The notes beneath the pieces were generated by a model. It made no database searches, had not been told where the DNA came from, and worked only from the letters and a program-made list of their open reading frames with translations. Made by a program: the position numbers and the translations under genes. A stretch of DNA of 55,568 nt from Desulfocurvibacter africanus subsp. africanus DSM 2603 (GTDB lineage Bacteria; Desulfobacterota; Desulfovibrionia; Desulfovibrionales; Desulfovibrionaceae): contig NZ_KE383874.1 in assembly GCF_000422545.1 (NCBI RefSeq), forward strand, positions 1 through 55,568. The letters are read 5' to 3'. Positions 4,224-16,612 of the stretch are shown in pieces. Positions within the stretch are counted from its first letter, which is position 1. The number at the start of each line of letters is the position of its first letter.

Positions 4224-4240
4224 AGGCCCTTCGCGAGTTC

Positions 4241-4316
4241 GCCAGCGTAGCTCAGTTGGTAGAGCAGCTGATTCGTAATCAGCAGGTCCGGAGTTCAAAT
4301 CTCCGCGCTGGCTCCA
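4241..4316 (+). tRNA. tRNA-Thr (anticodon CGT)
   Basis: The 76-nt gene folds as a full cloverleaf: acceptor GCCAGCG pairs with CGCTGGC, the D-arm is GCTCAGTTGGTAGAGC, the anticodon loop is TTCGTAA with anticodon CGT (threonine, ACG codons), the T-loop is GTTCAAAT, and CCA is encoded. Its 3' part, from the anticodon arm (4271) onward, is duplicated at 16530-16575, so the gene is the integration target of the downstream element. Integration has restored a complete tRNA. Confidence 0.97.
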
Positions 4317-4353
4317 AAAAAAACAGGGACTTACACATCTGCCGGTAAGTCCC
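4271..4353 (+). repeat. attL: left 83-bp direct repeat of the integrated element
   Basis: Bases 4271-4316 (46 bp, tRNA 3' part) are identical to 16530-16575. After nine divergent bases, 4326-4353 is identical to 16585-16612. The repeat therefore spans the tRNA 3' end and its terminator. The element between the two copies is about 12.26 kb. Confidence 0.93.
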
Positions 4354-4359
4354 TTTTTT
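4326..4359 (+). terminator. Intrinsic terminator of tRNA-Thr
   Basis: GGGACTTAC (4326-4334) pairs with GTAAGTCCC (4345-4353) over a 10-base loop and is followed by six T. The same hairpin recurs at 16585-16612 behind the partial tRNA copy. Confidence 0.9.
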
Positions 4360-4362
4360 CAT

Positions 4363-4396
4363 GGGTGAGCAAAAAGTGAGCAAAGTGGGGCAAAAA
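4363..4396. repeat. Left arm-type integrase binding repeats
   Basis: GTGAGCAAAAAGTGAGCAAA starts at 4365, followed by a weaker GTGGGGCAAAAA unit. The same 22-bp block (4363-4384) occurs at 16352-16373 in the same orientation, directly before the integrase gene. Paired decamers at both ends of an integrated element are the usual layout of arm sites bound by a tyrosine integrase N-terminal domain. Confidence 0.75.
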
Positions 4397-4516
4397 GCCT
4401 CGCTGGAATAGAGGGTTGGGAGATTGTCCCAGCCCTTTTGTTTTTGGATCACTGAACTGTAAAATTTTGGTAACGTGAGAAGTCCTGACCCATCCCTGAA
4501 CCTCGGGAAGATGCTT

Positions 4517-4942
4517 ATGAGTGAATGGATTGCGTTGGAGAAGGCAGCAAAGGACTACTTCGAGAACAACCTTGGTATTGATCTTCAAAGCCCGTTTCCC
4601 ATTCTGATCAATGTCCCTGGTCGAACTCCCCAAATCCACAGGTTTGATGCGGGTTCACATGAGCATCAGATAGCGATTGAGTGCAAATGTCATCAGTGGG
4701 TAAGGGGTAAGGCGTTGCCCCCGGCGAAATTCTCCAACTGGAATGAGGCTATGCACCTTTTCAACTGCCTTCCTGAGGGTTTCCGCAAAGTCTTTTGTGT
4801 GATGAGGTGCTTACAAGAGGGTTCAGGCAAGGCGTTATCCGCTCTCTATATTGAAAGAAATGGTCACCTGATACCAAGTGATGTTGAAATATATGAGGGT
4901 GAGAAAAACCCGGTAAACTGGTCTTTTTCAAGAGTCTTGTAG
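4517..4942 (+). CDS. PD-(D/E)XK nuclease-like protein of unknown role
   Basis: This protein of about 141 residues carries FDAGS followed by IAIECKCHQW, which fits the D...ExK active-site pattern of the PD-(D/E)XK nuclease fold, and then a WNEAM segment that I associate with an uncharacterised family of that fold. The start is uncertain: I chose the ATG at 4517, with GGGAAG 11 bases upstream; ATG 4511 and GTG 4475 are in frame. It is the first gene inside the left end of the element and converges on the HEPN-like gene. Its place next to a KAP NTPase and a HEPN-like protein suggests a defence or DNA-processing role. That is inference from fold and location. Confidence 0.7.
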   Translation: MSEWIALEKAAKDYFENNLGIDLQSPFPILINVPGRTPQIHRFDAGSHEHQIAIECKCHQWVRGKALPPAKFSNWNEAMHLFNCLPEGFRKVFCVMRCLQEGSGKALSALYIERNGHLIPSDVEIYEGEKNPVNWSFSRVL

Positions 4943-4969
4943 TCGTCAATTCCGCTACAATTCTTTGAT

Positions 4970-5707
4970 TTACTTATCAGTCTTTTTTCTTTGACAGTTT
5001 TTCATCATTTCTTGAAAATGCTCTTTGAAATTTGGGTAAAAGTTGTCGCGAATATTATGGAGAATTCTTACAACAAAATCGTTGAAATTCTTCATTGTGT
5101 ATTCGTCTGAATTCAACTCACTTTCATCAGTAATGTGGATATGAATATTATTACGTAGTCTTCTGCATTTATCAATCATCTTGACGTCATCTCTGTCCCA
5201 ATGCAAAACTTCAAGCCTTCGAAACTCATTTATAACTTTAAGTAAGTCTTTTGCATCGAACTTTATTGAGCGGTACTTGCATTCGGTAATTGGACATTTC
5301 CCATCTCCATCACAATAATCATTCAAATTCTTCATGCACCCTCTTATCAGTGCCTCAATGATAGTATATAGGTTGATGATTTGGTACTTGTAAAAAATGC
5401 TTTGAACTGAAAGACCGATATCAAATCTATTGGCAATGAAGTTTAAAAAGTCACCATATTGAAAAGCATAAGTTATATTCTGTTTCAGCAGTTTGTCCTT
5501 TACAAGAGGGTATATGCTATAAGCTGCATTGAAGTAGTCAGTGGTACGTATATAACCAGTAGGCAAACGTATTCTATCCTTCTTGGAGAGAATCATTTGA
5601 GAAACCGGCGGATTGAAACCAGCTTCCCTTTGTAGTTTCTCGATTTCCATTAGCGTTTCAGAACAGGAATAACAAAGTTCCATCAGCTTCTTTTGGTGCC
5701 CATTCAC
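4970..5707 (-). CDS. HEPN-like protein, possible ribonuclease
   Basis: This helical protein of 245 residues has KCRRLRNNIHIH near residues 180-191, close to the R-x(4-6)-H signature of HEPN ribonucleases, preceded by a YTIIEALIRGC helix typical of HEPN-type bundles. A CDGDGKCPITEC segment near 132-143 could bind a metal. The start is a GTG at 5707 with GAGG eight bases upstream. A small gene (5728-5940) lies just upstream on the same strand, an arrangement seen for toxin-antitoxin or defence pairs. HEPN membership is judged by eye; an adaptor role without catalysis is possible. Confidence 0.65.
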   Translation of the reverse strand: MNGHQKKLMELCYSCSETLMEIEKLQREAGFNPPVSQMILSKKDRIRLPTGYIRTTDYFNAAYSIYPLVKDKLLKQNITYAFQYGDFLNFIANRFDIGLSVQSIFYKYQIINLYTIIEALIRGCMKNLNDYCDGDGKCPITECKYRSIKFDAKDLLKVINEFRRLEVLHWDRDDVKMIDKCRRLRNNIHIHITDESELNSDEYTMKNFNDFVVRILHNIRDNFYPNFKEHFQEMMKNCQRKKTDK

Positions 5708-5727
5708 GATGCCACCCTCAGCTTGCG

Positions 5728-5940
5728 TTAAATTATACCAAAAATAGCTGCCGTAAGTTTTTCCGCGTCCGCATTGTCCTTTATGAGTTTGAGAGCTTCA
5801 TGCGGCATCAGACGAAGAAAGTCTTCAAACTTCTCCCGGCTTACCCCCGCCCTCTTCCACAGGCGCAAAGCCTCGTAGCGTTTTCGCGAGTACCCAAGGA
5901 TAGCCCAGGGTTTTTCTAGTTGTAGCTTGCTAATCGTCAT
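5728..5940 (-). CDS. Small basic hypothetical protein
   Basis: This protein of about 70 residues is rich in Lys, Arg and Leu (YSRKRYEALRLWKRAG) and likely all-helical. I do not recognise a family. The ATG at 5940 is chosen over the in-frame GTG at 5955; neither has a strong ribosome site. It precedes the HEPN-like gene by 20 bases and probably shares its transcript, so it may be the partner protein of a two-gene module. It is divergent from the KAP NTPase gene. Confidence 0.5.
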   Translation of the reverse strand: MTISKLQLEKPWAILGYSRKRYEALRLWKRAGVSREKFEDFLRLMPHEALKLIKDNADAEKLTAAIFGII

Positions 5941-6138
5941 TCTGTATGTGTCCACTGAGACTTACGATTGACAACAATCAATAGTTTTGCTTGTCTTTTA
6001 AAGTAAATCAGGCACATCTAGATATATTTGCTGCGAGAGTACGAATCCGTCAAGCGTCTTAGCTCATGCTTGGACTTTTTCCAGGATGAAACTATCGGTC
6101 CACCAAGCGGCATCAGCGACTAATTGGAGGTATTCAAT

Positions 6139-7494
6139 ATGAAGCTATTTCCCCCTGAAATTGAAGTGGGTGAAGATGAAGGCTTTGAGCCCTCCAAAGA
6201 TATTTTCAAGCGCAAAGAATATGGTGAATATCTAGCTCGCCTTTTTTCAGTGGTCGAAGACCCGATGGTCGTTGTTTTGGATGAGCCTTGGGGAAGCGGT
6301 AAGACAACGTTCGTAAAGATGCTAGCGGGACATCTCCGGAATGAGAGCTTTCCTGTGATCTACTATGATGCTTTCGCTAATGACTACAATGATGACGCTT
6401 TTATCAGTATAACCGGTGAAGTAATGTCGTTGGCTGACAAATTGAAGACGGAGCTGGATAGTCGAAAGGAAAGGTTTTTGGATGCCGCAACATCTCTTGC
6501 CAAGAAGGTCTTGCCTATACTTGGTAAAGCTGCTGTAAAAGCTGCTACATGTAATATAATTACCGACAAGAATTTTGAAGATGTATCAAAAGCTATGTCA
6601 GATTCCTTTGCAAACCTTGCAGAAACTGAGTTACGCTCGTTTATAGCCCAGTATGGAAAAAACAAAGAGTTGGTGAGCGAGTTTAAAAACTCTCTTACAA
6701 GTTTAGCAATGATGCTAAGAGAGTCAAAGGCTTCTGAGAAGCCTCTTGTTTTCATCATTGATGAGCTGGATAGATGTAAACCGCCTTTTGCATTAAGTCT
6801 CCTGGAAAGGATAAAGCATTTTTATTCTATCAAAGGCATTCATTTCCTGCTTGTCGCAGATATGAGACAACTTGAAAACTCGGTGATGTACAGCTATGGA
6901 TCTTCAATAGATTCAAAGAGATATCTTCAAAAATTCTACAATCTTGTCGAAAGATTTCCCTCAAAGGATGAACGTAGGCAAAGTGACGTAAGAACCTTCT
7001 TAACTAACGTTTATGAGGGCTTGCCAGATGATTCCCAGGATGGTGAATATAAAAATCAAATTATAGAGACTCTTGAAGCAATTTCGTTGCAGAAAGGGTT
7101 TACACTTAGGACAGTGGAGAAAATTTCTTCCCATGTCGCGTTGCTACTGTTGAAAACTAATCATAACACACTTAGGATTTCCACCATAATGACTTGCCTC
7201 TGCGCATTAAAGGTGGAGCAGCCCAGTTTGTATGAGCGTGCGCAAAAGAAGCTTATCAGCTTTGAAGAATTGGACGATTACTTCAAATTTAACTTGTGGA
7301 GAACAGATGAACACAGCATAAAATTTGCTGTTGACTGGTGGAAGTTCTGTGTTCTTCCCTCATTGGAGGGCGACAACGAGGAACTTAATGATTTTTCAAA
7401 ACATCTGCATCGATATGGCATCAGAAACAGGAAAGATATAATTCCAGTGCTTTGTCGGCTTCTGGATGGAACAAAATTTGTTTCAGACAAGTAG
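6139..7494 (+). CDS. KAP family P-loop NTPase
   Basis: This 451-residue protein has Walker A WGSGKTTF near residues 51-58 and Walker B LVFIIDELDRCKP near 203-215. The latter is the diagnostic KAP (Kidins220/PifA) form, followed by LLVADMRQLENSV and the region YLQKFYNLVERFP. KAP NTPases are STAND-like switches; PifA of plasmid F excludes phage T7 and many KAP proteins lie in defence islands. No clear membrane insertion is seen between the Walker motifs, unlike many bacterial KAP proteins. The ATG at 6139 has TTGGAGG upstream; the open frame begins at a TTG inside that ribosome site. Cargo of the element; defence is inferred. Confidence 0.9.
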   Translation: MKLFPPEIEVGEDEGFEPSKDIFKRKEYGEYLARLFSVVEDPMVVVLDEPWGSGKTTFVKMLAGHLRNESFPVIYYDAFANDYNDDAFISITGEVMSLADKLKTELDSRKERFLDAATSLAKKVLPILGKAAVKAATCNIITDKNFEDVSKAMSDSFANLAETELRSFIAQYGKNKELVSEFKNSLTSLAMMLRESKASEKPLVFIIDELDRCKPPFALSLLERIKHFYSIKGIHFLLVADMRQLENSVMYSYGSSIDSKRYLQKFYNLVERFPSKDERRQSDVRTFLTNVYEGLPDDSQDGEYKNQIIETLEAISLQKGFTLRTVEKISSHVALLLLKTNHNTLRISTIMTCLCALKVEQPSLYERAQKKLISFEELDDYFKFNLWRTDEHSIKFAVDWWKFCVLPSLEGDNEELNDFSKHLHRYGIRNRKDIIPVLCRLLDGTKFVSDK

Positions 7495-7539
7495 ATACTG
7501 AAAGTTAACACTCAGGGCACTCATATCCTTTGGAGAATA

Positions 7540-7568
7540 GGGCTCCTGAAATAGCCAGGAGCCCCTTT
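7540..7568. terminator. Bidirectional terminator between convergent genes
   Basis: GGGCTCCTG (7540-7548) pairs perfectly with CAGGAGCCC (7556-7564) and is followed by CTTT, between the ends of the KAP gene and the 7574-7948 gene. Confidence 0.7.
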
Positions 7569-7573
7569 GAAAC

Positions 7574-7948
7574 CTATTCCTGCTCCTGGCACTGCTTCTG
7601 GCTCTCTTCCTGCTGTTCATCATCCATCACGTCGCCAAACCTCATGAACTGGTGCAGGCGTCCGCCTTCTTCATCCATGAGTTTCATAAAATCCTCGGCG
7701 AGCTTCAATTCCTGATAATCTACCAACCCTTGCTCCAACTCTTTTATAAGCCCAACGGCAAGCATTCCCCCCGCAACATGTTCAGGAGAAACCCCATAGA
7801 ATTCAGCATAGTTGGTTATGACTTCTTGAAGTTTATCACTTATCAAAACGGTGATGGTTCCATTTGGAAATTGCTTTATTCCGTGTAGAATATCAGCACC
7901 TTGGGTAAGTGTAAATTCGATTACTTCTTTATCTGTCTTTTTTATCAT
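7574..7948 (-). CDS. Hypothetical acidic protein
   Basis: This 124-residue protein starts at an ATG with AAGGAG eight bases upstream. The sequence is strongly acidic with a Gln/Glu-rich tail (DDEQQEESQKQCQEQE). No domain is recognised. It lies downstream of, and probably in one transcript with, the 214-residue zinc-binding protein, and ends at a shared terminator. The good ribosome site and AT-rich codon use match the rest of the element, so it is likely expressed. Function unknown. Confidence 0.65.
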   Translation of the reverse strand: MIKKTDKEVIEFTLTQGADILHGIKQFPNGTITVLISDKLQEVITNYAEFYGVSPEHVAGGMLAVGLIKELEQGLVDYQELKLAEDFMKLMDEEGGRLHQFMRFGDVMDDEQQEESQKQCQEQE

Positions 7949-8002
7949 AAAAATCTCCTTTATATTTTCAAATATTTACTATCAGCAGCCCGCTATCATT
8001 GA

Positions 8003-8647
8003 CTATCCTGCTTTTCCATCTCCGCATGAGAGGATTTCAGCAAGCAACTTTTCCACATATTGAACAGTGATAGGCTTGCCGTTCTCAGCATAGAAGCCTT
8101 TTTCATTCAACACACTTGCTATTTTGTCTGGCTCCATTGGTAGCAGTGGCTCTATTTCCAGCATGATAAGTCTTCGGTGTGTCTTCTTTGCAACAAGGTC
8201 ATTTGGGTCAAGAAGCCCATGGAAATCCAGGAGAAACTTTACCTTGTAGACCATCCATTTTCCACCAAGCGGAGCGGGGATGTTCCTTGAATTGAGGATG
8301 TCTGCAATATCATTTGGATGATGAACAGCAAGTTCTCTCGCAACGTTTCCCAAGACGGCGAGGATACGATTTTCCTTTGAGCCCATAAGTGAAATACCCT
8401 TGGATAATGAGGTTTCAAGATGATGTTTCAAAGGTGAGCATTTATCACATAGGGAATGTAATTGGTTCTTTGATTTTACATCATCACTTCCAGGCGCATT
8501 ACATATGCAGCATTTGTTGACTTTGCTTGATGCTGTTGGTTTCCATCCTCTTGATGTAAAACGCTGCTCATAATAGTCTTTCTGCTGTTCATACAGCTCA
8601 TCATCCCATTCTGACCATTTTCCGTTTCCATATTCTGTTGGTAGCAT
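8003..8647 (-). CDS. Zinc-finger protein with recombinase-like winged segment
   Basis: In this 214-residue protein, CCICNAPG and LCDKC form a likely four-cysteine zinc site near residues 46-74. Further on, IADILNSRNIPAPLGGKW followed by VKFLL resembles the DNA-binding recombinase segment of large serine recombinases (LNxxGIxxPxGGxW). No serine catalytic domain is present, so this is probably a DNA-binding regulator rather than an enzyme. The ATG at 8647 has TGGAG upstream. It is divergent from the small operon at 8773 and could control it through the near-palindrome at 8710-8741. Function is inferred only. Confidence 0.6.
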   Translation of the reverse strand: MLPTEYGNGKWSEWDDELYEQQKDYYEQRFTSRGWKPTASSKVNKCCICNAPGSDDVKSKNQLHSLCDKCSPLKHHLETSLSKGISLMGSKENRILAVLGNVARELAVHHPNDIADILNSRNIPAPLGGKWMVYKVKFLLDFHGLLDPNDLVAKKTHRRLIMLEIEPLLPMEPDKIASVLNEKGFYAENGKPITVQYVEKLLAEILSCGDGKAG

Positions 8648-8709
8648 TTTTTTTCTCCATCAAATCTGAATTTCACTCCTGTATTTATTCAATAGTAATC
8701 AACAAAATT

Positions 8710-8741
8710 ATAAAAATGTGTGTCGTTTGAGCACACTTTTA
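8710..8741. promoter_or_regulatory. Near-palindrome in a divergent intergenic region
   Basis: ATAAAAATGTGTG and CACACTTTTAT face each other across TCGTTTGAG, midway between the divergent genes at 8647 (-) and 8773 (+). Its symmetry and position fit an operator for a dimeric regulator. Confidence 0.45.
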
Positions 8742-8772
8742 TAAATAGTACAGACTGGAATGGAGGACGTAA

Positions 8773-8976
8773 ATGTTACAAGATGTTATCGCTGAAAAAA
8801 TTTATACTCATATATTGAATGATGTTGAGTTCAAGTATCTGAGAAATGTTCTTACAAATATAGCAGTTGATGAAGATGCAAAAAATAAAACACGTGAATA
8901 TATTACACGGACATTCAAAAAAATCTCATTGATGGCGGCAGAGCAAGCAATCAGAAATATAAAAGGAGAAAAGTAA
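8773..8976 (+). CDS. Small hypothetical protein, first gene of the prohead-protease operon
   Basis: This 67-residue, mostly helical and charged protein has no recognised family. Its start has GGAGG eight bases upstream. Its stop lies two bases before the protease start, and the protease ribosome site (AAAGGAG) sits inside this gene, so the two are tightly coupled. In T4-like phages small core proteins precede the gp21 protease; homology cannot be claimed from sequence this short. Confidence 0.6.
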   Translation: MLQDVIAEKIYTHILNDVEFKYLRNVLTNIAVDEDAKNKTREYITRTFKKISLMAAEQAIRNIKGEK

Positions 8977-8978
8977 TA

Positions 8979-9527
8979 ATGGCGTTACTTTTGGAATATA
9001 GCACTGACTACGGAGTGACCGTCAAAGGGGATAACCTCTTTATTGAGGGAGTTTTCGCAAAAGCGATGGTCAAGAATGAGAACAGCAGAGTTTACCCAAT
9101 TGCGCTACTTGAACGTGAAGTGAGTAAACTACTTCCGAAAATTGAAAATAAACAGTTATTTGGACAGCTGAATCATCCGGAAGAACCCCAAATTGACCTT
9201 TCAAGGGTCGCAATCCGAATTGATGAACTATTTTGGGTCAAGAATGAATTATTTGGAAAAGCAAAAGTGCTGGATACGCCAATGGGTGAGATTGCAAAAA
9301 CTCTGGTAAGAGAAGGACAAATTGGCATCTCTTCTCGTGGCATTGGAACTGTTGGTGCTGATGGAATTGTCAGAGACAACTATCAATTGATTACATTTGA
9401 TTTGGTTGCTGACCCTTCCACAACTGAAATGGTCAGTTGCGTTCATGAAAGCATTCGAAGAGATGATAGTTTTGAGAAAATGATGAAAATTTGGATACAG
9501 AAGACAAGGGAGTTGAACAACAAATGA
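8979..9527 (+). CDS. T4 gp21-type prohead core protease (peptidase U9 family)
   Basis: This 182-residue protein would mature a procapsid by cleaving scaffold and capsid proteins. It aligns by eye with T4 gp21 along its length: FIEGVFAKAMVKNENSRVYP near residues 21-40, GQLNHPEE with candidate catalytic His66, GKAKVLDTPMG, GISSRGIGTV with candidate catalytic Ser118 or Ser119, and TFDLVADPS with candidate acidic residues Asp141 or Asp145. gp21 has about 212 residues, so this is a compact but apparently intact member. AAAGGAG precedes the ATG. No portal, scaffold, major capsid, terminase or tail gene is visible in the element, which leaves the protease without an encoded substrate. It may act on proteins of a co-infecting T4-like phage. 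Confidence 0.88.
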   Translation: MALLLEYSTDYGVTVKGDNLFIEGVFAKAMVKNENSRVYPIALLEREVSKLLPKIENKQLFGQLNHPEEPQIDLSRVAIRIDELFWVKNELFGKAKVLDTPMGEIAKTLVREGQIGISSRGIGTVGADGIVRDNYQLITFDLVADPSTTEMVSCVHESIRRDDSFEKMMKIWIQKTRELNNK

Positions 9528-9688
9528 AATTTCTGAAATACATTTATAAGACTGAAACTACTGAACAACTCAATAAGCATAATGATAACTTCAATTCACT
9601 TTTGAAAAAGTCACGGTGCAAAGTAGAGAAATCTGAGTATAAGAAAATTATCGAAATGATTCAAAATATGTTGGCTGAGAGGAAGTAG
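9524..9688 (+). CDS. Small hypothetical protein translationally coupled to the protease
   Basis: This protein of 54 residues starts at the ATG in the ATGA overlap with the protease stop. It is Lys- and Glu-rich (EKSEYKKIIEMIQNML) and probably helical. A longer in-frame start at 9491 lies within the protease and has no ribosome site. No family is recognised. The overlap implies production in step with the protease, so a partner, inhibitor or scaffold peptide is a reasonable guess. Confidence 0.6.
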   Translation: MKFLKYIYKTETTEQLNKHNDNFNSLLKKSRCKVEKSEYKKIIEMIQNMLAERK

Positions 9689-9692
9689 AACT

Positions 9693-10052
9693 ATGCAAAA
9701 TTTACACATATATCTTGTAGAATTTCAACTTCGTTCACTATATCCAGGTCAGTTTGCAAATCCTGACAAATTTGAGATGATGACTGCGAACATAGTTGCA
9801 ATCAGCGCAGAGGACGCGATGAACGTTGTTGCTGAATACTATGGCAATAGGCTTTTCAAAATTATTGATGCTCGTGTTATAAACAGCGTTGACGCACTCG
9901 GTTATGGGGTTATCAGTAGAGTTGTGATTGATAACTACCAATCAGTAAAAGCCAAGGCGCTCCATCAATACAGAGATATGCATGGCTCCCGTGGGCTTGA
10001 AAAAGGTGAAAAGTCCATGCTGCTGGAAAAGTTGGGGATTGAAAATGCGTAG
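9693..10052 (+). CDS. Hypothetical protein in the prohead-protease operon
   Basis: This 119-residue protein starts four bases after the preceding stop, with GAGAGGAAG upstream. The N-terminal half (IYLVEFQLRSLYPG, IVAISAEDAMNVVAEYYG) looks like a small alpha/beta domain and the C-terminal third is basic and helical. No family is recognised. It overlaps the next gene by eight bases. Confidence 0.6.
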   Translation: MQNLHIYLVEFQLRSLYPGQFANPDKFEMMTANIVAISAEDAMNVVAEYYGNRLFKIIDARVINSVDALGYGVISRVVIDNYQSVKAKALHQYRDMHGSRGLEKGEKSMLLEKLGIENA

Positions 10053-10188
10053 ACAGCAGGAGCGAGTTACGGTCTACCTACCCAAATGGCACATTGAAGT
10101 CCTCAAAGAGCAGTCGAGCCGCGAAAAGATCAGCATGAGCGCCCATATACGGCGCTTGCTGGCTCGCGTGGAGACCAAGAAGGTATAA
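10045..10188 (+). CDS. Ribbon-helix-helix (CopG/Arc-like) DNA-binding protein
   Basis: This 47-residue protein has QERVTVYLPKWHIEVLKEQS, a beta strand and first helix, followed by EKISMSAHIRRLLAR, the second helix: the ribbon-helix-helix layout of dimeric repressors. The ATG at 10045 overlaps the preceding gene. It closes the operon and lies just upstream of the TTGACATTCAT repeats at 10258-10393, a plausible operator, so it may regulate the recombinase at 10423 or its own operon. Confidence 0.7.
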   Translation: MRRQQERVTVYLPKWHIEVLKEQSSREKISMSAHIRRLLARVETKKV

Positions 10189-10214
10189 ATAAGTCACTAT
10201 GGTCATGTATGGGT

Positions 10215-10255
10215 AAGGGCGGGCTCTCCTGTTGGGAGGCTCGCCCTTATCTTTT
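10215..10255 (+). terminator. Intrinsic terminator of the prohead-protease operon
   Basis: AAGGGCGGGCTCTCC pairs with GGAGGCTCGCCCTT (ending 10248) with minor mismatches and is followed by ATCTTTT. Confidence 0.75.
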
Positions 10256-10257
10256 CC

Positions 10258-10403
10258 TGAATGTCAATTTATACAGAGAAATTGACATTCATAATTTTAC
10301 GTCATGATTTCAAATGCTTAGCCAGCATGTTGAATTGACTTGATTTTTGAATATCAAGTATGTATAAATAGAGTCAGCAAACTTGACATTCATCCCGTAC
10401 GGG
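10258..10403. promoter_or_regulatory. Operator-like region before the core recombinase
   Basis: TGAATGTCAATTT (10258-10270) and AAATTGACATTCA (10279-10291) form a perfect 13-bp inverted repeat. TTGACATTCAT recurs at 10383. ACTTGAT (10338) and ATCAAGT (ending 10359) form a second inverted repeat around a weak promoter (TTGACT 10335, TATGTA 10359). CCCGTACGGG (10394) is a 10-bp palindrome. Repeated symmetric half-sites suggest binding by a dimeric regulator, possibly the ribbon-helix-helix protein just upstream. Confidence 0.5.
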
Positions 10404-10422
10404 AGACCAGGAGAATAAAGAA

Positions 10423-10974
10423 ATGATAGTGGAACCAATCACCAGCCTTGACGCAATCGAGACAATCAAGAAGATGTTGAGTCCTCGGGATAAGTTGCTG
10501 TTCGTCGTGGGAATCAACAACGGGCTCCGGATCGGTGACTTGCTCCGACTCAAAGTGGATGACCTGGACGGCAAGAAAGTTGGCGAGTGCGTGTCCCTGG
10601 TGGAAGAGAAGACCGGAAAGCCCAATGTCCTTATGGTCAACAAGACGGTTTTCAAGGTTTTCAAAGAGTACAAGGAAGCCTGCAATCCCCTTCCGGGAGA
10701 TTTCTTGTTCCAGTCCAGGAAGGGAAAGAATCAACCTTTGAGCGTCGAGGCGTGTAACCGGATGGTCAAGTCCTGGTGTAAGGCTGTTGGGCTCAAAGGG
10801 AATTTTGGGACACACACCTTGCGCAAAACGTGGGGATGGGTTCAGCACTCGCAGTTTGGTACTTCATCGGAAATCATTTGCAGACGCTATAACCATTCGA
10901 GCCCCCGTATCACAATGACTTATCTCGGAATTACGAGTAGGGATGTGGAAAATGTATTGCTCAGGGAGATATAA
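10423..10974 (+). CDS. Tyrosine recombinase, catalytic core only
   Basis: This 183-residue protein has all active-site residues of a tyrosine recombinase: Arg36 in GLRIGD, Lys63 or Lys66 in EEKTGK, His131 and Arg134 in HTLRKTWG, His158 in RRYNHSS and the nucleophile Tyr167 in MTYLGI. It lacks the arm-binding and core-binding N-terminal domains of normal integrases. AGGAG precedes the ATG. The element already has a full integrase at 15065, so this is a second recombinase, perhaps a resolvase for multimers of an excised circle, an inversion enzyme or a helper. Four bases separate it from the next gene. Confidence 0.85.
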   Translation: MIVEPITSLDAIETIKKMLSPRDKLLFVVGINNGLRIGDLLRLKVDDLDGKKVGECVSLVEEKTGKPNVLMVNKTVFKVFKEYKEACNPLPGDFLFQSRKGKNQPLSVEACNRMVKSWCKAVGLKGNFGTHTLRKTWGWVQHSQFGTSSEIICRRYNHSSPRITMTYLGITSRDVENVLLREI

Positions 10975-10977
10975 GCA

Positions 10978-11592: not shown

Positions 11593-11600
11593 GTATAAGT

Positions 11601-11780
11601 TCAGCCTCGAAGCATTTTAATTTTTTCAGTCTCATACCGCGAACAATAGTCAATAATCATCCGACGCAACAATTGGCTGATTGTCATTCCACGGTCACTT
11701 GCCATGACCATCAAACGTGTTTTGATTTCAGGAGTAAGGTAGGTTTCTGCTTTCTCTTTGAAAACTGTTCTTTTCGTCAT
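11601..11780 (-). CDS. Ribbon-helix-helix-like DNA-binding protein
   Basis: This protein of about 59 residues has KAETYLTPEIKTRLMVMASD followed by GMTISQLLRRMIIDY, a strand-helix-helix pattern typical of CopG/Arc proteins. The ATG at 11780 lies two bases after the upstream stop; a TTG at 11792 is also in frame. It may act as a copy-number or partition-type regulator given the replication-like region downstream. That is inference. Confidence 0.6.
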   Translation of the reverse strand: MTKRTVFKEKAETYLTPEIKTRLMVMASDRGMTISQLLRRMIIDYCSRYETEKIKMLRG

Positions 11781-11782
11781 TG

Positions 11783-12109
11783 TTATATCCAATCAAGTGA
11801 AGTCTTATTATTTCCAAAATCTTCTTTTCGTTGAAGAGCTGTTTCAGCAATCTTCTCTCTCATCCATTGTTCACCAATTGTCATTTGAACTCTTGTTGAT
11901 ATCATATCAACAAATCCCCTGTGGTAAATGCTGATAATGTGATACGTTTCAACTTTGGCTTCAAGAGAGAGAACCTTTTCAAGTTTCTCATTGATATCTT
12001 CGCGGTCAATGGCGATGAGTGACCACTTGTGTCTTTCAGGTGTGGACTTGTTTTGATCTTTCAGCATCAACTCAACCTCAATATCAAAAACAGATAACTT
12101 TTTCATCAT
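11783..12109 (-). CDS. Hypothetical protein
   Basis: This protein of about 108 residues has no recognised domain. The ATG at 12109 (or 12106) is preceded by TTGGAGG; the longer reading to 12181 lacks a ribosome site. The sequence mixes short strands (LSVFDIEVELML) and charged helices. It is directly followed on the same strand by the ribbon-helix-helix gene, so the two form a small operon pointing away from the palindrome-rich region. Confidence 0.6.
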   Translation of the reverse strand: MMKKLSVFDIEVELMLKDQNKSTPERHKWSLIAIDREDINEKLEKVLSLEAKVETYHIISIYHRGFVDMISTRVQMTIGEQWMREKIAETALQRKEDFGNNKTSLDWI

Positions 12110-12840
12110 ATTCCTCCAATCGTCATTACTACGCATATTTATCAAATGACTGTGAAAGAATGTAAATGAATGTAAATTCAATATTGGTCATTATTGCATC
12201 TGGATTTCTCAATACCAATCTTGGAAATATAACAACATAATCAATGGTATAGTATGTAAACAAGAATCATCAACTTTCAATCAATGGTAATTTTCATCAA
12301 TGTTTACAATATATTTTCCCCTGGTAGGTAAGAGATAGTCTGACATATGAATAACAGTGGGTAAAGGTTCAACATGAAGAAATTACAGTCCCTTGAAATG
12401 ATCTACGCGCATAGCGCGTGAACATGTCCAGGGGAATATCAAACGGATCACGTCCACGAGTCACCTAACGCCGTTTTTACCCCCTATGGGGAATCAACGG
12501 GAGTTGGGCAGGGTCAGTGTCTCAAACGACATTGTGAGCCATCTGAGAGCCCCAAGTTATGAGGTTCGCGCCATGCGCGAGTATCAAAGGGATGGTGATC
12601 AAGAGACAAGGTAACCAATGGAACTTTCAGGAGTGATTTCAAAAAATTATCACGCGACATCAATGCATCTGTGATTCCAGGTGGATATAAGACCTTTTTT
12701 GAAATCAAAGATGATTGAATGATAGTAATTCAATCTCTCCTGAAACCTGAGCGAAGCGAAAAGCGCTATTTTTAATTTTTCTTATCTATAAGAACTATCT
12801 ATAACTATCTATCAGGTCGAGTTATCCCAGCAGTACCAAC
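12110..12840. other. Gene-free AT-rich region with palindromes, candidate replication region
   Basis: No gene with a ribosome site is visible. The region holds the inverted repeat TGTAAACA (12255) / TGTTTACA (12301), two ATCAATGGTA copies near 12240 and 12280, and the GC-rich palindromes ACGCGCATAGCGCGT (12405-12419) and TCGCGCCATGCGCGA (12566-12580). Together with the iteron-like cluster that follows and the putative replication gene, it could contain an origin. This is inference. Confidence 0.4.
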
Positions 12841-12857
12841 GAAAATTCGGCGGCTGA

Positions 12858-13129
12858 CCCCTCACGGTGAGGGCATCCCCCCTCATCATGAGGGCATCCC
12901 CCTCATGATGAGGGCAAATGTACTCATGGTGAGTATAAAACCCCTCACCGTGAGGGGGTCATGAAGCACAATTTCAACATAAACCATGTCCAGAATGAAA
13001 AGCATTGATGGATAAAGGAAAATTATCTGCCATTCGTTGAACATCAAAAAATGAAAAACCCCTCACGGTGAGGGGTTTCATAAAAATGTTGGCGTAACAA
13101 AAGGGATATAACGTACTCATCGTGAGGGT
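12858..13129. repeat. Cluster of seven CTCA-YSR-TGAG palindromes (iteron or operator array)
   Basis: Seven palindromes share the core CTCA(C/T)(C/G)(A/G)TGAG, most widened to CCCTCAC..GTGAGGG: 12858-12873, 12880-12894, 12900-12914, 12921-12935, 12941-12957, 13056-13078 and 13114-13129. The first five are spaced about 21 bp apart, close to two helical turns. They lie just downstream of the putative replication gene (13148-13894, reading away). Regular spacing and symmetry suggest cooperative binding by a dimeric protein, as in plasmid iterons or partition sites. Confidence 0.8.
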
Positions 13130-13147
13130 GTATTAGCGTGAAACATT

Positions 13148-13894
13148 CTACTGCTTCTTTTTCTTTTCCTCGGCAATTCGGAGTCTTGTAAGTCTCTCTT
13201 TCACTCCAAGCTCAATTGCATGTTGGTTCACTTTCCATGTGTCCCAATGTATATTGATCGCATATTCATCATTATATTCAATGAGCATGTTCTTTTCGCA
13301 TAAATTTTTCAATGTTCTTTTGATATTCCTGTTTGTGATACCTGTGTATTCTGAAATTTCTTTATTCTTTCTTGGGTAGAACTGCCGAAAAGAATTATAT
13401 CCCATCTGAAAGTTGTAGAAATACTCAAATAGCGGTCTTTCCGCTGAACCAAGCTCAGCCCTCATCAAAACCACGTACATTTCAATCGGCATTTGGCGGT
13501 AATGCTTATAGCACTGTGATTTGAAGTCCATAGGTATGGTATCTGGCTCTTCCTGATCTTCCTGATTTTCTTCTTGGTTCTCCTCGGGCTCTCCATCTGG
13601 CTTGGGTTCAGGCTCAACTTGAACCGCCTTGGCTTGCCTGGGCTCCTGTCTCGGGCTCTCTTGCTTGGTTTCTCTCTTGGGCTCCTGGCTGGGCTCCTGC
13701 TCTCCTTCACCGTCCAGGCTGTTCAAAGACGCTTGCAATTCCTGATCTATAAACTGTCCATTCCTGTATTCAAGCCCATACCCCTGTAATTCCTGATAAA
13801 GACTTTCTATTTTTTGTTTTTGCATCTTGTTCGGATTCGCTGCTCTCGACAGACTGTTGTAAACCCTCACTTTATTTTCAATAACATAATTCAT
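13148..13894 (-). CDS. Putative replication initiator / winged-helix DNA-binding protein
   Basis: This 248-residue protein has three parts: a basic N-terminal region, a long Pro/Glu/Gln-rich linker (about 70-125), and a C-terminal domain with NKEISEYTGITNRNIKRTL, a helix-turn-helix, then a strand pair LIEYNDEYAINIHWDTW, as in winged-helix replication proteins of plasmids and phages. The ATG at 13894 has GGAGG about ten bases upstream. The array of palindromes starts 20 bases after its stop, which supports a Rep/iteron relation. A transcription regulator of the same fold is the alternative. I do not see primase or helicase motifs. Confidence 0.6.
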   Translation of the reverse strand: MNYVIENKVRVYNSLSRAANPNKMQKQKIESLYQELQGYGLEYRNGQFIDQELQASLNSLDGEGEQEPSQEPKRETKQESPRQEPRQAKAVQVEPEPKPDGEPEENQEENQEDQEEPDTIPMDFKSQCYKHYRQMPIEMYVVLMRAELGSAERPLFEYFYNFQMGYNSFRQFYPRKNKEISEYTGITNRNIKRTLKNLCEKNMLIEYNDEYAINIHWDTWKVNQHAIELGVKERLTRLRIAEEKKKKQ

Positions 13895-13924
13895 TTTCAA
13901 AAATCCTCCATAATTTTTACTTTA

Positions 13925-13976
13925 CCTTGGAGGATGTCTGATGTAGTATCACATTACAACATCTTTGGTGCTACAT
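13925..13976. promoter_or_regulatory. Long imperfect inverted repeat upstream of the putative rep gene
   Basis: GAGGAT..CTGATGTAG near 13932 and CTACATCAG..ATCCTC ending near 13986 are complementary apart from a few mismatches. Located 30-90 bases before the replication-like gene, the structure could be a leader hairpin or autoregulatory operator. Confidence 0.4.
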
Positions 13977-13990
13977 CAGTTATCCTCTCA

Positions 13991-14020
13991 AAAGGCACTA
14001 CTCGAAAAGTAGTGCCTTTT
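13991..14020. terminator. Intrinsic terminator
   Basis: AAAGGCACTACT and AGTAGTGCCTTT form a near-perfect stem with a short loop and flanking A and T runs, so it can work on both strands. It overlaps the last codons of the 62-residue gene on the minus strand. Confidence 0.75.
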
Positions 14021-14186
14021 CTTTATCCAACTCTTCACGAATAACTTTCATCTCTCTTTCTACCCGTTCGTTTGTCTGTTCTTTGGTCATGCTGAACATT
14101 GCGTATAAATCGCCGTATAACTTCATTCTCAACTTCAATAAGTCCATTTTCTGATCTGGCGTGAGTCTGCTGTTCCATCTCTTCAT
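13998..14186 (-). CDS. Small charged helical protein
   Basis: This 62-residue protein is basic at its N-terminal half (MKRWNSRLTPDQKMDLLKLR) and ends in a charged coil (NERVEREMKVIREELDKEK). The ATG has AAGGAG seven bases upstream, which marks it as a real gene. No family is recognised. It lies in a row of small minus-strand genes between the integrase and the putative replication gene. Confidence 0.65.
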   Translation of the reverse strand: MKRWNSRLTPDQKMDLLKLRMKLYGDLYAMFSMTKEQTNERVEREMKVIREELDKEKALLFE

Positions 14187-14215
14187 TTGAAATCTCCTTT
14201 TTGTTTCGTTTACAT

Positions 14216-14312
14216 AAAGGAGACTCGCTGTTACCTTATAAATAGATTTGAGAACAGCGAAGTCTCCTTTTTGATGGCGTTCCTTTTTGGTAGGGGGAGC
14301 GCCATTTTTTAT
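14216..14312. terminator. Two stacked hairpins, likely terminators
   Basis: AAAGGAGACTCGCTGTT (14216-14232) pairs with AACAGCGAAGTCTCCTTT, and GATGGCG...CGCCAT (14274-14306) forms a second hairpin followed by T-rich sequence. They lie between two small minus-strand genes. Confidence 0.6.
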
Positions 14313-14317
14313 TGTCC

Positions 14318-14470
14318 CTATTGATGTTCTTTGATCGTTTTTGCTACGTAATCTCTTACAAATTCAGAAAAAGGAAGATTGTACTTCTTCAAGACTGAGT
14401 CAATTTCTTTTGCCTGACTTGTGGTGAGCATAACATTTTTCATTACGCTGAATCTTTCTTTTACTTGCAT
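14318..14470 (-). CDS. 50-residue ribbon-helix-helix-like protein
   Basis: This 50-residue protein begins at an ATG (14470) with a strong GGAGGT seven bases upstream and ends at a TAG at 14318. The sequence includes RFSVMKNVMLTTSQAKEIDS, a strand and helix, and LPFSEFVRDYVAKTI, a second helix, which fits a ribbon-helix-helix DNA-binding protein. It adds to two others of that fold in the element, so one of them is a candidate binder for the CTCA/TGAG palindromes. Confidence 0.65.
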   Translation of the reverse strand: MQVKERFSVMKNVMLTTSQAKEIDSVLKKYNLPFSEFVRDYVAKTIKEHQ

Positions 14471-14579
14471 TGATGGACCTCCATGTGCATAAATATTTCA
14501 ATCATACATATATTTATATAAATCATACTACGATGTAAACCTTCCTCATTTCTCTTTTGTGCATCATTGGAAATGAGAA

Positions 14580-14609
14580 AGGGGTACAACCATTGCTGGT
14601 CATACCCCT
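14580..14609 (-). terminator. Intrinsic terminator of the 88-residue acidic gene
   Basis: AGGGGTA (14580-14586) pairs with TACCCCT (14603-14609), with an inner ACCA/TGGT pair, and on the minus strand it is followed by TTTCTC. Confidence 0.6.
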
Positions 14610-14632
14610 CTGTGATTGGTTGATTACACTGC

Positions 14633-14899
14633 TTATTCCGCGAAGTCAGGAACCTCATATTCATCCGGTCCGTACTCCGACCCGTATTCGTAGACTTCCT
14701 GCTTTATGATTTCAATCATGTTCTCATCGGTGTGAACATCCGTCCCACGTCCAGTATCCTTGTACTCGATGTCGTTATTTTCCCCATCTGAATGAACATT
14801 GTGTCGAATCGTGGCGGCATAAAGCCAATACTCTGACTTTGGGATAGTAAATTTCAGAGTAACTTCAATCTCTTCATCTTCCATATCATATTCAATCAT
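14633..14899 (-). CDS. Small acidic hypothetical protein
   Basis: This protein of 88 residues is extremely acidic (EYDMEDEEIEV, EYGSEYGPDEYEVPDF). The ATG at 14899 has TTGGAGG upstream; a longer reading begins at a TTG inside that site. Highly acidic small proteins in mobile elements are sometimes DNA mimics such as Ocr or anti-restriction proteins. That reading is only suggested by composition here. No family recognised. Confidence 0.6.
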   Translation of the reverse strand: MIEYDMEDEEIEVTLKFTIPKSEYWLYAATIRHNVHSDGENNDIEYKDTGRGTDVHTDENMIEIIKQEVYEYGSEYGPDEYEVPDFAE

Positions 14900-15006
14900 A
14901 TAATCCTCCAAGATTGTTTTTATACTTTGAAAGTATAGATCATAAATTCATTCATTTGTCAACAATATTCATTTTTGATGAAATTGCATCATCAAAAAAC
15001 AAAGAA

Positions 15007-15036
15007 CGGACCAAGATACATTCCCTGGTCCGCTCT
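15007..15036 (-). terminator. Intrinsic terminator of the integrase gene
   Basis: CGGACCA (15007-15013) pairs with TGGTCCG (15026-15032). On the minus strand the stem is followed by TTCTTTGTTTTTT, 30 bases after the integrase stop. Confidence 0.7.
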
Positions 15037-15064
15037 CTTTTGGGCTCTCAAAAAAGAAAAATGA

Positions 15065-16342
15065 CTACTTCGTCTCTTTCAGCAACTCCAAAACGTTGAG
15101 TTTTATTCTCAACTCATTGATTTCTCGGTCAATCTCTTCCACGTTGGCTTCCATTTTTCGTTGCAGGATGATTTCTTCTCTCTTTTTCTCGGAGGCATTG
15201 AAAGCCTTGACCGCGTCATGGTCACGAAAATGCCCATATCGCAATTCAATCATCTTGGTGTCCACGTGACCCATTGCCCGAGCGATGAAGGGGAGAGGAA
15301 TATCAGGTCGTTTTGCCATGTCTTGTGCAAATTTATGACGACAGTGGTACAATGTATAATCATTTTTTATCTTACATACTTTCAAGCATGCCTTGAAAGA
15401 TTTTCTTATGTTCAATATCCTATTCCCATTATCATCAACAAATATATAATCATTTTGTCTCTTTTTGATCTTGTCCCTTTGATGGAGTGCTTCCAGGATT
15501 TTTACTGCCCTGTCCACAAGTGGAACGTTTCTATGTTGTGGTGTCTTTTTTTTGGATTTCATCGCCCGAATGAGGATGGTTTGTTTATTCCAGTCCACAT
15601 CAGACCAAATCAAGTTGTTCAATTCTTGTGGATACCTCAATCCAGTGAGCAACAAAAACCTTATCATTTGAGCATAGTATAAATTTTCTTCGTCAAAATA
15701 TGCAAGTATCTGATCTCTTTCACTATCCGACATTGGTTCGGATCGAATGTTTTCTTCAAGGTAAGCAACTTTTGGGCATGGTTTATCAACCAATTGGTGC
15801 TCATGGACTTGTGCATAACGCAAGATTGCGACAAGTAATTGTGCTTCTCTGTTCAATAAACAATTTGAAACTTCTGTAAATTTTCTACCAGTGATGACCT
15901 TGCCATTACGTTTATATTGCTGAACCTGCTTTGTCTTGTGCGTCTTGTAGTAACCACGCCTCCATTTTATGTAATCGTTCACGTCTTTTTGAATAAAGTC
16001 ATTGACATCCTTGGTTTTATACCTCTCAATCAGGTATGTTGAATGATGTTTATACATTGCATATGTCTTTGCTTTGACCCTATCTTTCTTGAAGTCCAAA
16101 AATTTCTTGACGCATGTTGTAAAATCAAGCGGCTTTGCAATCCTCTTTCCTGAAATAATATCATTATATACTTTGGTTACAAATCGTGCTGCTTGCTTTT
16201 CATCCGAAGTTTTGCATGAACCCTTGTGAGCCTTGCCTTTATGATCCGTGAAATAGTAGTAGATTTTATCACTTTTCCCGTCGCCACGACGAAAGAGGGT
16301 GATTGGGTAGTCTTCCAACTTGCGCAGGGTGACTTGTGACAT
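15065..16342 (-). CDS. int: Tyrosine site-specific integrase
   Basis: This 425-residue protein would catalyse integration and excision of the element at tRNA-Thr. The N-terminal part (DYPITLFRRGDGKSDKIYYY) is an arm-binding domain, followed by a SAM-like core-binding region and a catalytic domain with Arg in TGLRYPQEL, Lys in AMKSKKK, YHCRHKFAQ as the HxxR box (with Tyr at the usual first His), GH in MGHVDTK and nucleophile Tyr in LRYGHF. I start at the ATG at 16342, with GGAG seven bases upstream; an open-frame start at 16384 would lie inside the arm-type repeat at 16352-16373. The gene faces inward from the right end, about 190 bases from attR. Overlap of its leader with arm sites suggests autoregulation. 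Confidence 0.93.
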   Translation of the reverse strand: MSQVTLRKLEDYPITLFRRGDGKSDKIYYYFTDHKGKAHKGSCKTSDEKQAARFVTKVYNDIISGKRIAKPLDFTTCVKKFLDFKKDRVKAKTYAMYKHHSTYLIERYKTKDVNDFIQKDVNDYIKWRRGYYKTHKTKQVQQYKRNGKVITGRKFTEVSNCLLNREAQLLVAILRYAQVHEHQLVDKPCPKVAYLEENIRSEPMSDSERDQILAYFDEENLYYAQMIRFLLLTGLRYPQELNNLIWSDVDWNKQTILIRAMKSKKKTPQHRNVPLVDRAVKILEALHQRDKIKKRQNDYIFVDDNGNRILNIRKSFKACLKVCKIKNDYTLYHCRHKFAQDMAKRPDIPLPFIARAMGHVDTKMIELRYGHFRDHDAVKAFNASEKKREEIILQRKMEANVEEIDREINELRIKLNVLELLKETK

Positions 16343-16351
16343 GGTGTCTCC

Positions 16352-16443
16352 GGGTGAGCAAAAAGTGAGCAAAATTTTCGACAAAACTGTCCTGGAACCC
16401 TTTGTAAATCAAGGTCTCCCAGGTGAGCAAGAGGTGAGTTCCA
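16352..16443. repeat. Right arm-type integrase binding repeats
   Basis: GTGAGCAAAAAGTGAGCAAA at 16354-16373 copies the left arm block at 4365-4384 in the same orientation. A related AGGTGAGCAAGAGGTGAG pair lies at 16421. They sit between the integrase start and attR, so integrase bound here would also cover its own promoter. Confidence 0.75.
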
Positions 16444-16529
16444 GACCTGAATTTTTTATTGATTTTTTATCTGAAAAAATTATAATATTTCAAAATATTA
16501 GATTGAATTTTTTCGCGGAGAGCCTTTGA

Positions 16530-16612
16530 ATTCGTAATCAGCAGGTCCGGAGTTCAAATCTCCGCGCTGGCTCCAGAAATTAAAGGGACTTACACATCTG
16601 CCGGTAAGTCCC
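16530..16612 (+). repeat. attR: right direct repeat with partial tRNA-Thr and terminator
   Basis: It matches 4271-4353 over the 46-bp tRNA 3' part and the 28-bp terminator hairpin (16585-16612). Only the 3' half of the tRNA is present, so it cannot make a functional tRNA. It marks the right end of the element and probably the original host 3' end displaced by insertion. Confidence 0.93.

What the first reader, a model, noticed from the sequence alone, without database searches (positions are those of the whole stretch)
4271..16612. A 12.26-kb AT-rich integrated element in tRNA-Thr that matches no standard class
Seen directly: 83-bp direct repeats, a full integrase, a core-only recombinase, a replication-like gene facing a palindrome array, several ribbon-helix-helix miniproteins, a KAP/HEPN/PD-(D/E)XK block and a phage prohead protease operon. 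Not seen: conjugation, terminase, portal, capsid or tail genes. The mix of plasmid-type replication, defence cargo and one head-maturation gene suggests a phage satellite or integrative plasmid type I cannot place in a named family.
Basis: partly seen in the sequence, partly recalled or inferred. Interest (0 to 1): 0.8.

Follow-up and report, generated by a model that had tools for sequence, protein, structure and literature searches.

The report
Probable satellite of a T4-like phage
A 12-kilobase piece of foreign DNA sits in a tRNA gene of this bacterium and carries a T4-type capsid-maturation protease, a small protein that starts like a T4 capsid filling and T4-type switch sequences, but no capsid genes, so it probably lives off an invading T4-like virus.

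Summary
Confirmed: a tRNA-Thr(CGT)-integrated element, 86-bp repeats (95%), 40% GC in a 56-61% GC region, with integrase, second short recombinase, weak Rep-like gene beside a palindrome array, KAP NTPase and a phage head protease; no terminase, portal, capsid, tail or relaxase family hit. New here: (1) the protease is T4 gp21-type (S77), modelled like PDB 5jbl, with catalytic His and Ser and the N-terminal propeptide motif. (2) The 35 S77 loci found by pattern scans all lie beside T4-like structural genes; this copy does not. (3) The gene upstream begins MLQDVIAEK, like T4 internal proteins and scaffold (EFIAE|A, LIAE|A); the strict motif is in 3 of 330 control ORFs. (4) TATAAATA, the T4 late-promoter consensus, occurs five times in the element and nowhere else in the window, once 25 nt before the protease operon. 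Best reading: a satellite of a T4-like helper with a helper-switched prohead-core operon (inferred, about 0.5). Rivals: anti-phage weapon, or inert capture. No sibling element or helper was found; excision and transfer are unshown. By gene content it is not P4-like, PICI, cfPICI or PICMI.

The parts
4241..4316 (+). tRNA-Thr(CGT), attachment gene, intact at the left junction
   Evidence: ARAGORN; Rfam tRNA E 1.1e-14
4271..4356 (+). left 86-bp repeat: tRNA 3' half plus hairpin terminator
   Evidence: fold
16530..16615 (+). right 86-bp repeat, 95% identical
4365..4384 (+). GTGAGCAA x2 just inside the left junction, arm-type-site-like
   Evidence: function inferred
16354..16438 (+). GTGAGCAA x3 just inside the right junction, at the integrase start, arm-type-site-like
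   Evidence: function inferred; one further copy at 15645 inside the integrase gene
15065..16342 (-). tyrosine integrase, 425 aa from ATG
   Evidence: PF00589 3.1e-22; phrog_1 8.1e-41; no close relative in 99 genomes
14633..14899 (-). acidic small protein, unknown
   Evidence: no convincing family
14318..14470 (-). 50-aa RHH-like small protein (by eye)
   Evidence: weak PHROG hits
13998..14186 (-). 62-aa protein, unknown
13148..13894 (-). Rep-like protein (phage O / DnaD-like wHTH)
   Evidence: weak: Phage_rep_O 1.4e-4, below cut-off; phrog_16826 1.6e-5
12861..13126 (.). seven palindromes CTCA[CT]S[AG]TGAG, five phased at 20-21 bp: candidate origin/operator array
   Evidence: role inferred
8740..8747 (+). 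T4-type late-promoter consensus TATAAATA, 25 nt before the protease operon's first ATG
   Evidence: controls; consensus from PMC1524935 passages
8773..8976 (+). 67-aa protein starting MLQDVIAEK, T4 capsid-targeting / gp21-cleavage-like N-terminus
   Evidence: no homologue found
8979..9527 (+). T4 gp21-type prohead protease (S77), His66 and Ser118 kept, propeptide MALLLE
   Evidence: PF03420 1.2e-25; phrog_207 1.9e-43; 5jbl; model
9524..9688 (+). 54-aa protein, start overlaps the protease stop (ATGA)
   Evidence: sequence
9693..10052 (+). 119-aa protein, N-terminus MQNLHIYLVE (loose cleavage motif)
   Evidence: no phage match
10045..10188 (+). 47-aa RHH protein closing the operon
   Evidence: RHH_1 5.3e-4, just below cut-off; phrog_2639 6.9e-5
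10211..10253 (+). strong hairpin and T-rich tail, probable operon terminator
   Evidence: fold; not listed by the consensus scan
10363..10370 (+). TATAAATA 52 nt before the short recombinase (a TTGATT -35 at 17 nt is also present)
10423..10974 (+). short (catalytic-domain) tyrosine recombinase
   Evidence: phrog_216 1.8e-43; phage relatives
10978..11592 (+). 204-aa protein, HEPN-like motif by eye
   Evidence: no family; phrog_19461 0.0076
11601..11780 (-). RHH (NikA-like, below cut-off)
   Evidence: PF21983 3.8e-4
11783..12109 (-). unknown protein
8003..8647 (-). 214-aa Cys-cluster/HTH protein, recombinase-like helix
   Evidence: PF07508 0.0019, PF20552 0.0026, both below cut-off; 1 of 288 family genomes (own)
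7574..7948 (-). 124-aa unknown
6139..7494 (+). KAP P-loop NTPase, candidate defence protein
   Evidence: PF07693 2.9e-34; PADLOC PDC-S20 1.8e-90
5728..5955 (-). 75-aa ORF, doubtful
   Evidence: phrog_28761 0.0088; left out of the gene counts
4970..5707 (-). 245-aa HEPN-like protein (motif by eye)
   Evidence: no family
4475..4942 (+). 155-aa PD-(D/E)XK-like protein (motif by eye)
   Evidence: no family
14237..14244 (+). TATAAATA followed about 30 nt later by a hairpin terminator: possible short RNA
   Evidence: inference
10184..10191 (+). TATAAATA over the end of the RHH gene, before the terminator
14511..14518 (-). TATAAATA 40 nt before the 50-aa gene (TTTACA at 15 nt also present)

Best explanation
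The element is a phage satellite (phage-inducible island) adapted to a T4-like myovirus. Shown: it lies in tRNA-Thr between attachment-type repeats with a tyrosine integrase; it has Rep/origin-like parts, candidate defence cargo and a five-gene operon holding a T4 gp21-type protease behind a T4-type late-promoter sequence; it lacks virion genes. Inferred: when a T4-like phage infects, the element excises and replicates from the palindrome array; the helper's late sigma factor (gp55 type) reads TATAAATA and switches the operon on; the 67-aa (perhaps also the 119-aa) protein enters the helper's prohead core by its N-terminal targeting peptide and is cut by gp21-type protease; the element's protease joins or replaces the helper's and biases head maturation toward the element. 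DNA would be packed as multi-copy concatemers in full heads (12.3 kb is about 1/14 of the T4 genome), and the second recombinase could resolve multimers. KAP and its neighbours would be cargo against other phages.
For: S77/gp21 identity by sequence and fold. H66 and S118 align with the two residues that read Ala in 5jbl, and H66, S118, R120 are invariant in 28 aligned rows. Propeptide M-x-L-x-x-E: 32 of 38 rows including this one (start codons were chosen by a script that favours such a pattern); in T4, loss of nine N-terminal residues activates the enzyme (PMC9958956 passages). No portal/scaffold/capsid in the element, whereas 35 of 35 comparison loci have at least one beside the protease, tested with annotated references. 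Cleavage/targeting motif: strict form in 1 of 19 element genes (the 67-aa one), 3 of 330 control ORFs, 3 of 49 ORFs in 28 kb of T4 (gp22, IPII, IPIII); loose form in 3 of 19 element genes, all in the protease operon, 22 of 330 controls, 8 of 49 T4. TATAAATA: five in the element, none elsewhere in the window; 0.48 expected in 1000 dinucleotide shuffles, none reaching 5; TATAAATAG six times in the 4.4-Mb genome, three in this 12 kb. At gene starts: 76 of 94 sites in 30 T4-like contigs, 6 of 33 in five AT-rich temperate phages, 3 of 5 here.
Against: No sibling element and no helper phage found: protease in 1 of 198 relatives (own); Rep in 2 of 395 (own and one weak hit); no phage match for the 119- and 214-aa proteins and one chance-level match for the 67-aa one. 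Own genome: no Gp23 hit, but that search had no working control. The 67-aa protein is no detectable homologue of gp67, gp68 or gp22. In the unrooted tree the protease attaches on a long branch between 34 T4-like rows and three divergent ones (L049, G201, G252), so its T4-like origin is not settled. Two of the three gene-start TATAAATA sites also have plausible sigma-70 -35 boxes (by eye); with ORFs of at least 90 aa only, 1 of 13 element genes has a site; phage GR1, not a T4-like reference, has 6 of 10 at gene starts; several other AT-only 8-mers are as frequent in the element; the reversed 9-mer is commoner genome-wide (11 against 6). T4-like phages also vary: Aeh1 uses CTAAATA. The motif tests were designed after the N-terminus had been noticed. 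One copy, so selection cannot be measured.
Confidence: 0.5

Rival explanations
1. A defence-carrying integrative element, not packaged in virions, that uses the gp21-type protease and the core-like protein as a weapon: late expression during T4-like infection misdirects or prematurely proteolyses the invader's prohead core.
For: KAP PDC-S20 and HEPN/nuclease-like neighbours (by eye); isolated protease without capsid genes; a T4-type late promoter would limit expression to infection; shorter, diverged C-terminus.
Against: The propeptide is kept, as expected of an enzyme still activated in a prohead; a Rep/origin module and a second recombinase are more than defence needs. No relaxase or other transfer route seen.
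Confidence: 0.22
2. A chimaeric integrative plasmid-like element that picked up a piece of a T4-like or related phage head module by chance; the protease operon is inert baggage.
For: Singleton in the searches; mixed composition (47% GC around the recombinase gene); no homologues of the neighbouring small genes.
Against: Frame, catalytic residues and propeptide intact on a long branch, which suggests long persistence; promoter-like site, coupled starts and terminator; no scaffold or capsid sequence left beside it.
Confidence: 0.2
3. A decayed prophage that once had a full head module.
For: Presence of a head gene; an integrase and a separate short recombinase occur together in temperate phage Javan370.
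Against: No terminase, portal, capsid or tail family among 20 ORFs; attachment repeats neatly enclose 12.3 kb; T4-type phages are large and normally virulent (recalled).
Confidence: 0.05

Closest known systems
PICMI (satellites of virulent Vibrio phages; PMC10803314, abstract and passages read)
   Same: small integrated element with integrase and replication gene that rides a virulent phage and protects against others; its concatemer packing without capsid remodelling is what we infer here
   Different: PICMI sits next to fis with AlpA and a primase; this one is in tRNA-Thr, has an O/DnaD-like Rep, a second recombinase and a gp21-type operon
P4 satellite (NC_001609)
   Same: 11.6 kb; integrase with arm repeats; origin repeats apart from the replication gene; late genes controlled with the helper (last point recalled)
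   Different: no alpha primase-helicase, Sid, Psu or Delta family hit here; P4 has no TATAAATA; helper type differs
PLE of Vibrio cholerae, PICIs and cfPICIs (features recalled; some titles and abstract starts seen)
   Same: phage-triggered islands that alter the helper's head production
   Different: no family hit to PICI-type hallmarks; cfPICIs carry their own capsid genes, absent here; PLE genes were not searched one by one
T4 gp21 / Peptidase S77 (PDB 5jbl)
   Same: fold, His/Ser residues, propeptide motif
   Different: stands alone; 182 aa against 212-220 in T4 and cyanophages; 30-48% identical to the phage proteins aligned
T4 internal proteins II, III and scaffold gp22
   Same: N-terminal peptide ending I-A-E before the cut (translations; cut positions recalled)
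   Different: rest of the 67-aa protein has no detectable similarity

Membership tests
Peptidase S77 (T4 gp21 type) | profile match above curated cut-off; catalytic His and Ser | tested here: met
   90.6 bits against cut-off 27; H66, S118; fold 5jbl E 1.9e-13
Integrated tRNA element with tyrosine integrase | tRNA gene, flanking repeats, integrase next to one end | tested here: met
Phage satellite (general) | excised and packaged by a helper phage | not testable with these tools
   no reads, no helper sequence
Phage satellite (general) | no complete virion gene set of its own | tested here: met
Satellite of a T4-like helper | T4-type late promoters before element genes | tested here: inconclusive
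   sequence enriched and placed before the protease operon; sigma-70 reading open at two of three gene-start sites
T4 capsid-targeted internal proteins | N-terminal peptide ending [LI]xE before the cut | tested here: met
   67-aa protein; strict motif in 3 of 330 controls; sequence motif only
T4 capsid-targeted internal proteins | actual incorporation into proheads and cleavage | not testable with these tools
   needs bench work
P4-like satellite | alpha primase-helicase, Sid/Psu/Delta | tested here: not met
   no such Pfam/PHROG hit in 20 ORFs
PICI / cfPICI | AlpA/Stl-type regulator, primase-rep, terS or capsid genes | tested here: not met
   no such hit
PICMI | integration next to fis; integrase, AlpA, primase | tested here: not met
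   tRNA-Thr site; no AlpA or primase hit
PLE | PLE-specific genes | not tested
   no PLE profile was searched by name
Mobilisable or conjugative element | relaxase | tested here: not met
   no relaxase family in 20 ORFs; an oriT used in trans was not tested; one RHH is NikA-like below cut-off
Prophage | terminase, portal, capsid, tail | tested here: not met

The most novel reading that the evidence does not exclude
A new satellite class that parasitises T4-like phages by late-promoter piracy and by inserting its own prohead-core module (a gp21-type zymogen protease plus capsid-targeted cargo proteins) into the helper's assembling head, so that its cargo protein is injected into the next cell together with its DNA.
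Probability: 0.35. Interest if true: 0.85.

Novelty: new variant of a known kind. Interest (0 to 1): 0.62.

Why it matters
In the listings of four literature searches (titles and abstract starts only, showing 20 of 29) I saw no satellite presented as depending on a T4-like phage; that is a limited search, not proof of absence. An element with the T4 head-maturation protease, a capsid-targeting peptide and T4 late-promoter sequences would mean that T4-type virulent phages too have parasites, entering through the prohead core, and it gives sequence marks (stand-alone S77 plus TATAAATA in a tRNA-borne island) for finding more.

Tried and rejected
Homology of the 67-aa protein to T4 gp67/gp68 or to the small cyanophage gene before gp21: none visible in an alignment, and phage tblastn gave one chance-level hit at E 7. 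Sibling elements by Rep, short recombinase, 119-aa and 214-aa proteins in IMG/VR: none; integrase: one 42% piece over 61 residues. Rep in phages and plasmids: none. Alignment A1 was too divergent for a scan, so the closer set A2 was used. Rfam: only the tRNA is credible; the other six matches lie far below their gathering scores. Decayed prophage and conjugative element: set aside for lack of the required genes. PMC12324425, the one paper found with 'phage satellite' and 'prohead protease' (parts 1-2 of 7 read), concerns small circular marine elements; nothing in those parts resembles this element. Empty-site test: of 58 relatives with a tRNA-Thr match (59 genomes) the 29 foreign loci kept (up to 1.5 kb each side) showed no tblastn hit to four integrases and the short recombinase, and 28 show one tRNA 3' end, one being cut off; integrases farther away would be missed, and in G024 a second tRNA 3' end lies 2.2 kb downstream, so this is weak support for empty sites.


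Full report
The element. A tRNA-Thr(CGT) gene lies at 4241-4316. Two 86-bp repeats, 4271-4356 and 16530-16615, 95% identical and 12,259 bp apart, start in the anticodon loop and run through the tRNA 3' half into a hairpin terminator, so integration kept both tRNA and terminator. GC is 0.402 inside against 0.561 and 0.607 outside. GTGAGCAA repeats lie just inside both junctions (4365, 4376; 16354, 16365, 16423; one more at 15645), as arm-type integrase sites would; this role is inferred.

Gene content. Pfam and PHROG scans of 20 ORFs give a full integrase, a short tyrosine recombinase, a KAP NTPase (PADLOC candidate defence protein PDC-S20, 1.8e-90), RHH proteins, a weak O/DnaD-type replication protein and a Peptidase_S77 protease. 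No terminase, portal, capsid, tail or relaxase family appears. The Rep gene is followed by seven palindromes CTCA[CT]S[AG]TGAG, five of them 20-21 bp apart. The short recombinase has relatives in 169 phage records; of the two looked at, in temperate phage Javan370 it is separate from the integrase and lies two genes before the large terminase gene, in GR1 it does not. The HEPN and PD-(D/E)XK labels are motif readings by eye.

The protease. It matches T4 gp21 in the PDB (5jbl, 2.3e-17), and its model (mean pLDDT 79, residues 146-164 below 50, 23-row alignment of mostly partial rows) finds 5jbl first (E 1.9e-13). Two residues that read Ala in 5jbl align with His66 and Ser118 here, which are invariant in 28 aligned rows. 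T4 gp21 is activated by removal of nine N-terminal residues (PMC9958956, passages), that is MNEPQLLIE by the translation; 32 of 38 proteases begin M-x-L-x-x-E, the element with MALLLE. Start codons were chosen by a script that prefers such a pattern, so that count is favourable; among the eight rows of A1, whose starts I set by annotation or ORF list, M1 and L3 are invariant. It looks like a working zymogen. In the unrooted tree it attaches on a long branch between 34 T4-like rows and three divergent ones (L049, G201, G252); by BLAST its best scores are to T4-like proteins, but also to L049 at about the same level.

It stands alone. A pattern scan of 84,980 species genomes with alignment A2 gave 29 loci and IMG/VR gave 6; such scans are not exhaustive. 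With annotated portal, scaffold and capsid proteins of T4, S-WAM2 and vB_OspM_OC as queries, 35 of 35 loci have at least one beside the protease, and the element has none (with a wider query set agrees). In the phylum, PF03420 was over its cut-off in 3 of 395 genomes: this one and two others, both with portal- and capsid-like hits nearby.

The operon looks like prohead core. The gene directly upstream encodes MLQDVIAEKIYTH. T4 proteins cut by gp21 begin MKTYQEFIAE|A (IPII, IPIII) and MLKEQLIAE|A (gp22) (translations; cut positions recalled). A strict form of the motif within about 15 residues occurs in 3 of 330 ORFs of six control phages, in 3 of 49 ORFs from 28 kb of T4 (gp22, IPII and IPIII; it misses gp21 itself, IPI and gp23) and in 1 of 19 element genes, the 67-aa one. 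A loose form occurs in 22 of 330 controls, 8 of 49 T4 ORFs and 3 of 19 element genes, all three in the protease operon (67 aa, protease, 119 aa) (the doubtful 75-aa ORF at 5728-5955 is left out of the 19). By hand, the chance that all three fall in this five-gene operon is 10/969. The motif was defined from T4 but after I had noticed the N-terminus, which weakens the test. T4 internal proteins are diverse apart from the targeting sequence (PMC3012670, passages), so lack of further similarity is not decisive.

T4-type late promoters. In T4 the consensus TATAAATA is read by the phage sigma factor gp55, and in five T4-like phages late promoters were found only 5' of late-gene orthologues, though the first T varies and Aeh1 uses CTAAATA (PMC1524935, passages). 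TATAAATA occurs five times in the element and nowhere else in the window; shuffles of the element give 0.48 and none of 1000 reaches 5; order-1 and order-2 estimates give 0.5 and 0.8. TATAAATAG occurs six times in the 4.4-Mb genome, three in this element; the reversed control occurs 11 times, once in the element. Sites at gene starts (my ORF calls): 76 of 94 in 30 T4-like contigs, 5 of 5 in three references (two of them nearly identical here), 9 of 14 in two stretches of T4, 6 of 33 in five AT-rich temperate phages, 6 of 10 in phage GR1, 3 of 5 here; counting only ORFs of at least 90 aa, 1 of 13 element genes has one. The site at 8740 is followed by a ribosome site and the operon's ATG and shows no -35 box by eye; the sites at 10363 and 14511 could also be sigma-70 promoters, and several other AT-only 8-mers are as frequent. 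The promoter case is fair for the protease operon and open for the rest.

Reading. Enzyme type, targeting peptide and promoter each point to one partner, a T4-like myovirus. With Rep/origin-like parts, an integrase and no virion genes, the simplest account is a satellite whose late operon enters the helper's prohead core. PICMIs show that satellites of virulent phages can be packed as concatemers in full heads (PMC10803314, abstract and passages). Excision, replication, packaging and the effect on a helper are not shown. The anti-phage-weapon and inert-capture rivals remain possible.

Protease in 1 of 198 relatives (own); Rep in 1 of 99 (own) and 2 of 395 (own; one weak, E 8.6e-4, 27% over 84 residues); the 214-aa protein in 1 of 288 (own); integrase hits in 58 of 99 genomes (own included), the best foreign one 34% over part of the catalytic domain. 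The element is a singleton in these searches. Gp23 was not found in the own genome, but that search had no working control.

Noticed in passing
L114 (G000 contig C35) 2315-2381 and window 4215-4281: A 67-bp, 99% copy of the tRNA-Thr upstream region and 5' half lies on another contig, followed by a different terminator-like hairpin; near both copies are TGTCCGCA repeats (window 4118-4139). It may mark the two ends of a second element or rearrangement that used the 5' side of the same tRNA gene.
   Followed up: partly
window 12300-12850: About 550 bp without convincing ORFs between the palindrome array and the gene at 11783-12109; possible origin or RNA region.
   Followed up: no
window 14207-14310: TATAAATA in the loop of a long hairpin, followed by a second hairpin with a T run: possible short plus-strand RNA.
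   Followed up: partly
L049: Prochlorococcus single-cell contig (130 kb) with a 425-aa S77 protease and a capsid protein only 28% like the T4-like references; no portal detected within the 20 kb held.
   Followed up: partly
G024 C1:1263506-1263584 and 1265709-1265753: In a relative, the tRNA-Thr 3' end is repeated 2.2 kb downstream: another element may use the same tRNA gene.
   Followed up: no
window 16700-16835: 21-nt inverted repeat, 90% complementary, 94 nt apart, just right of the element.
   Followed up: no
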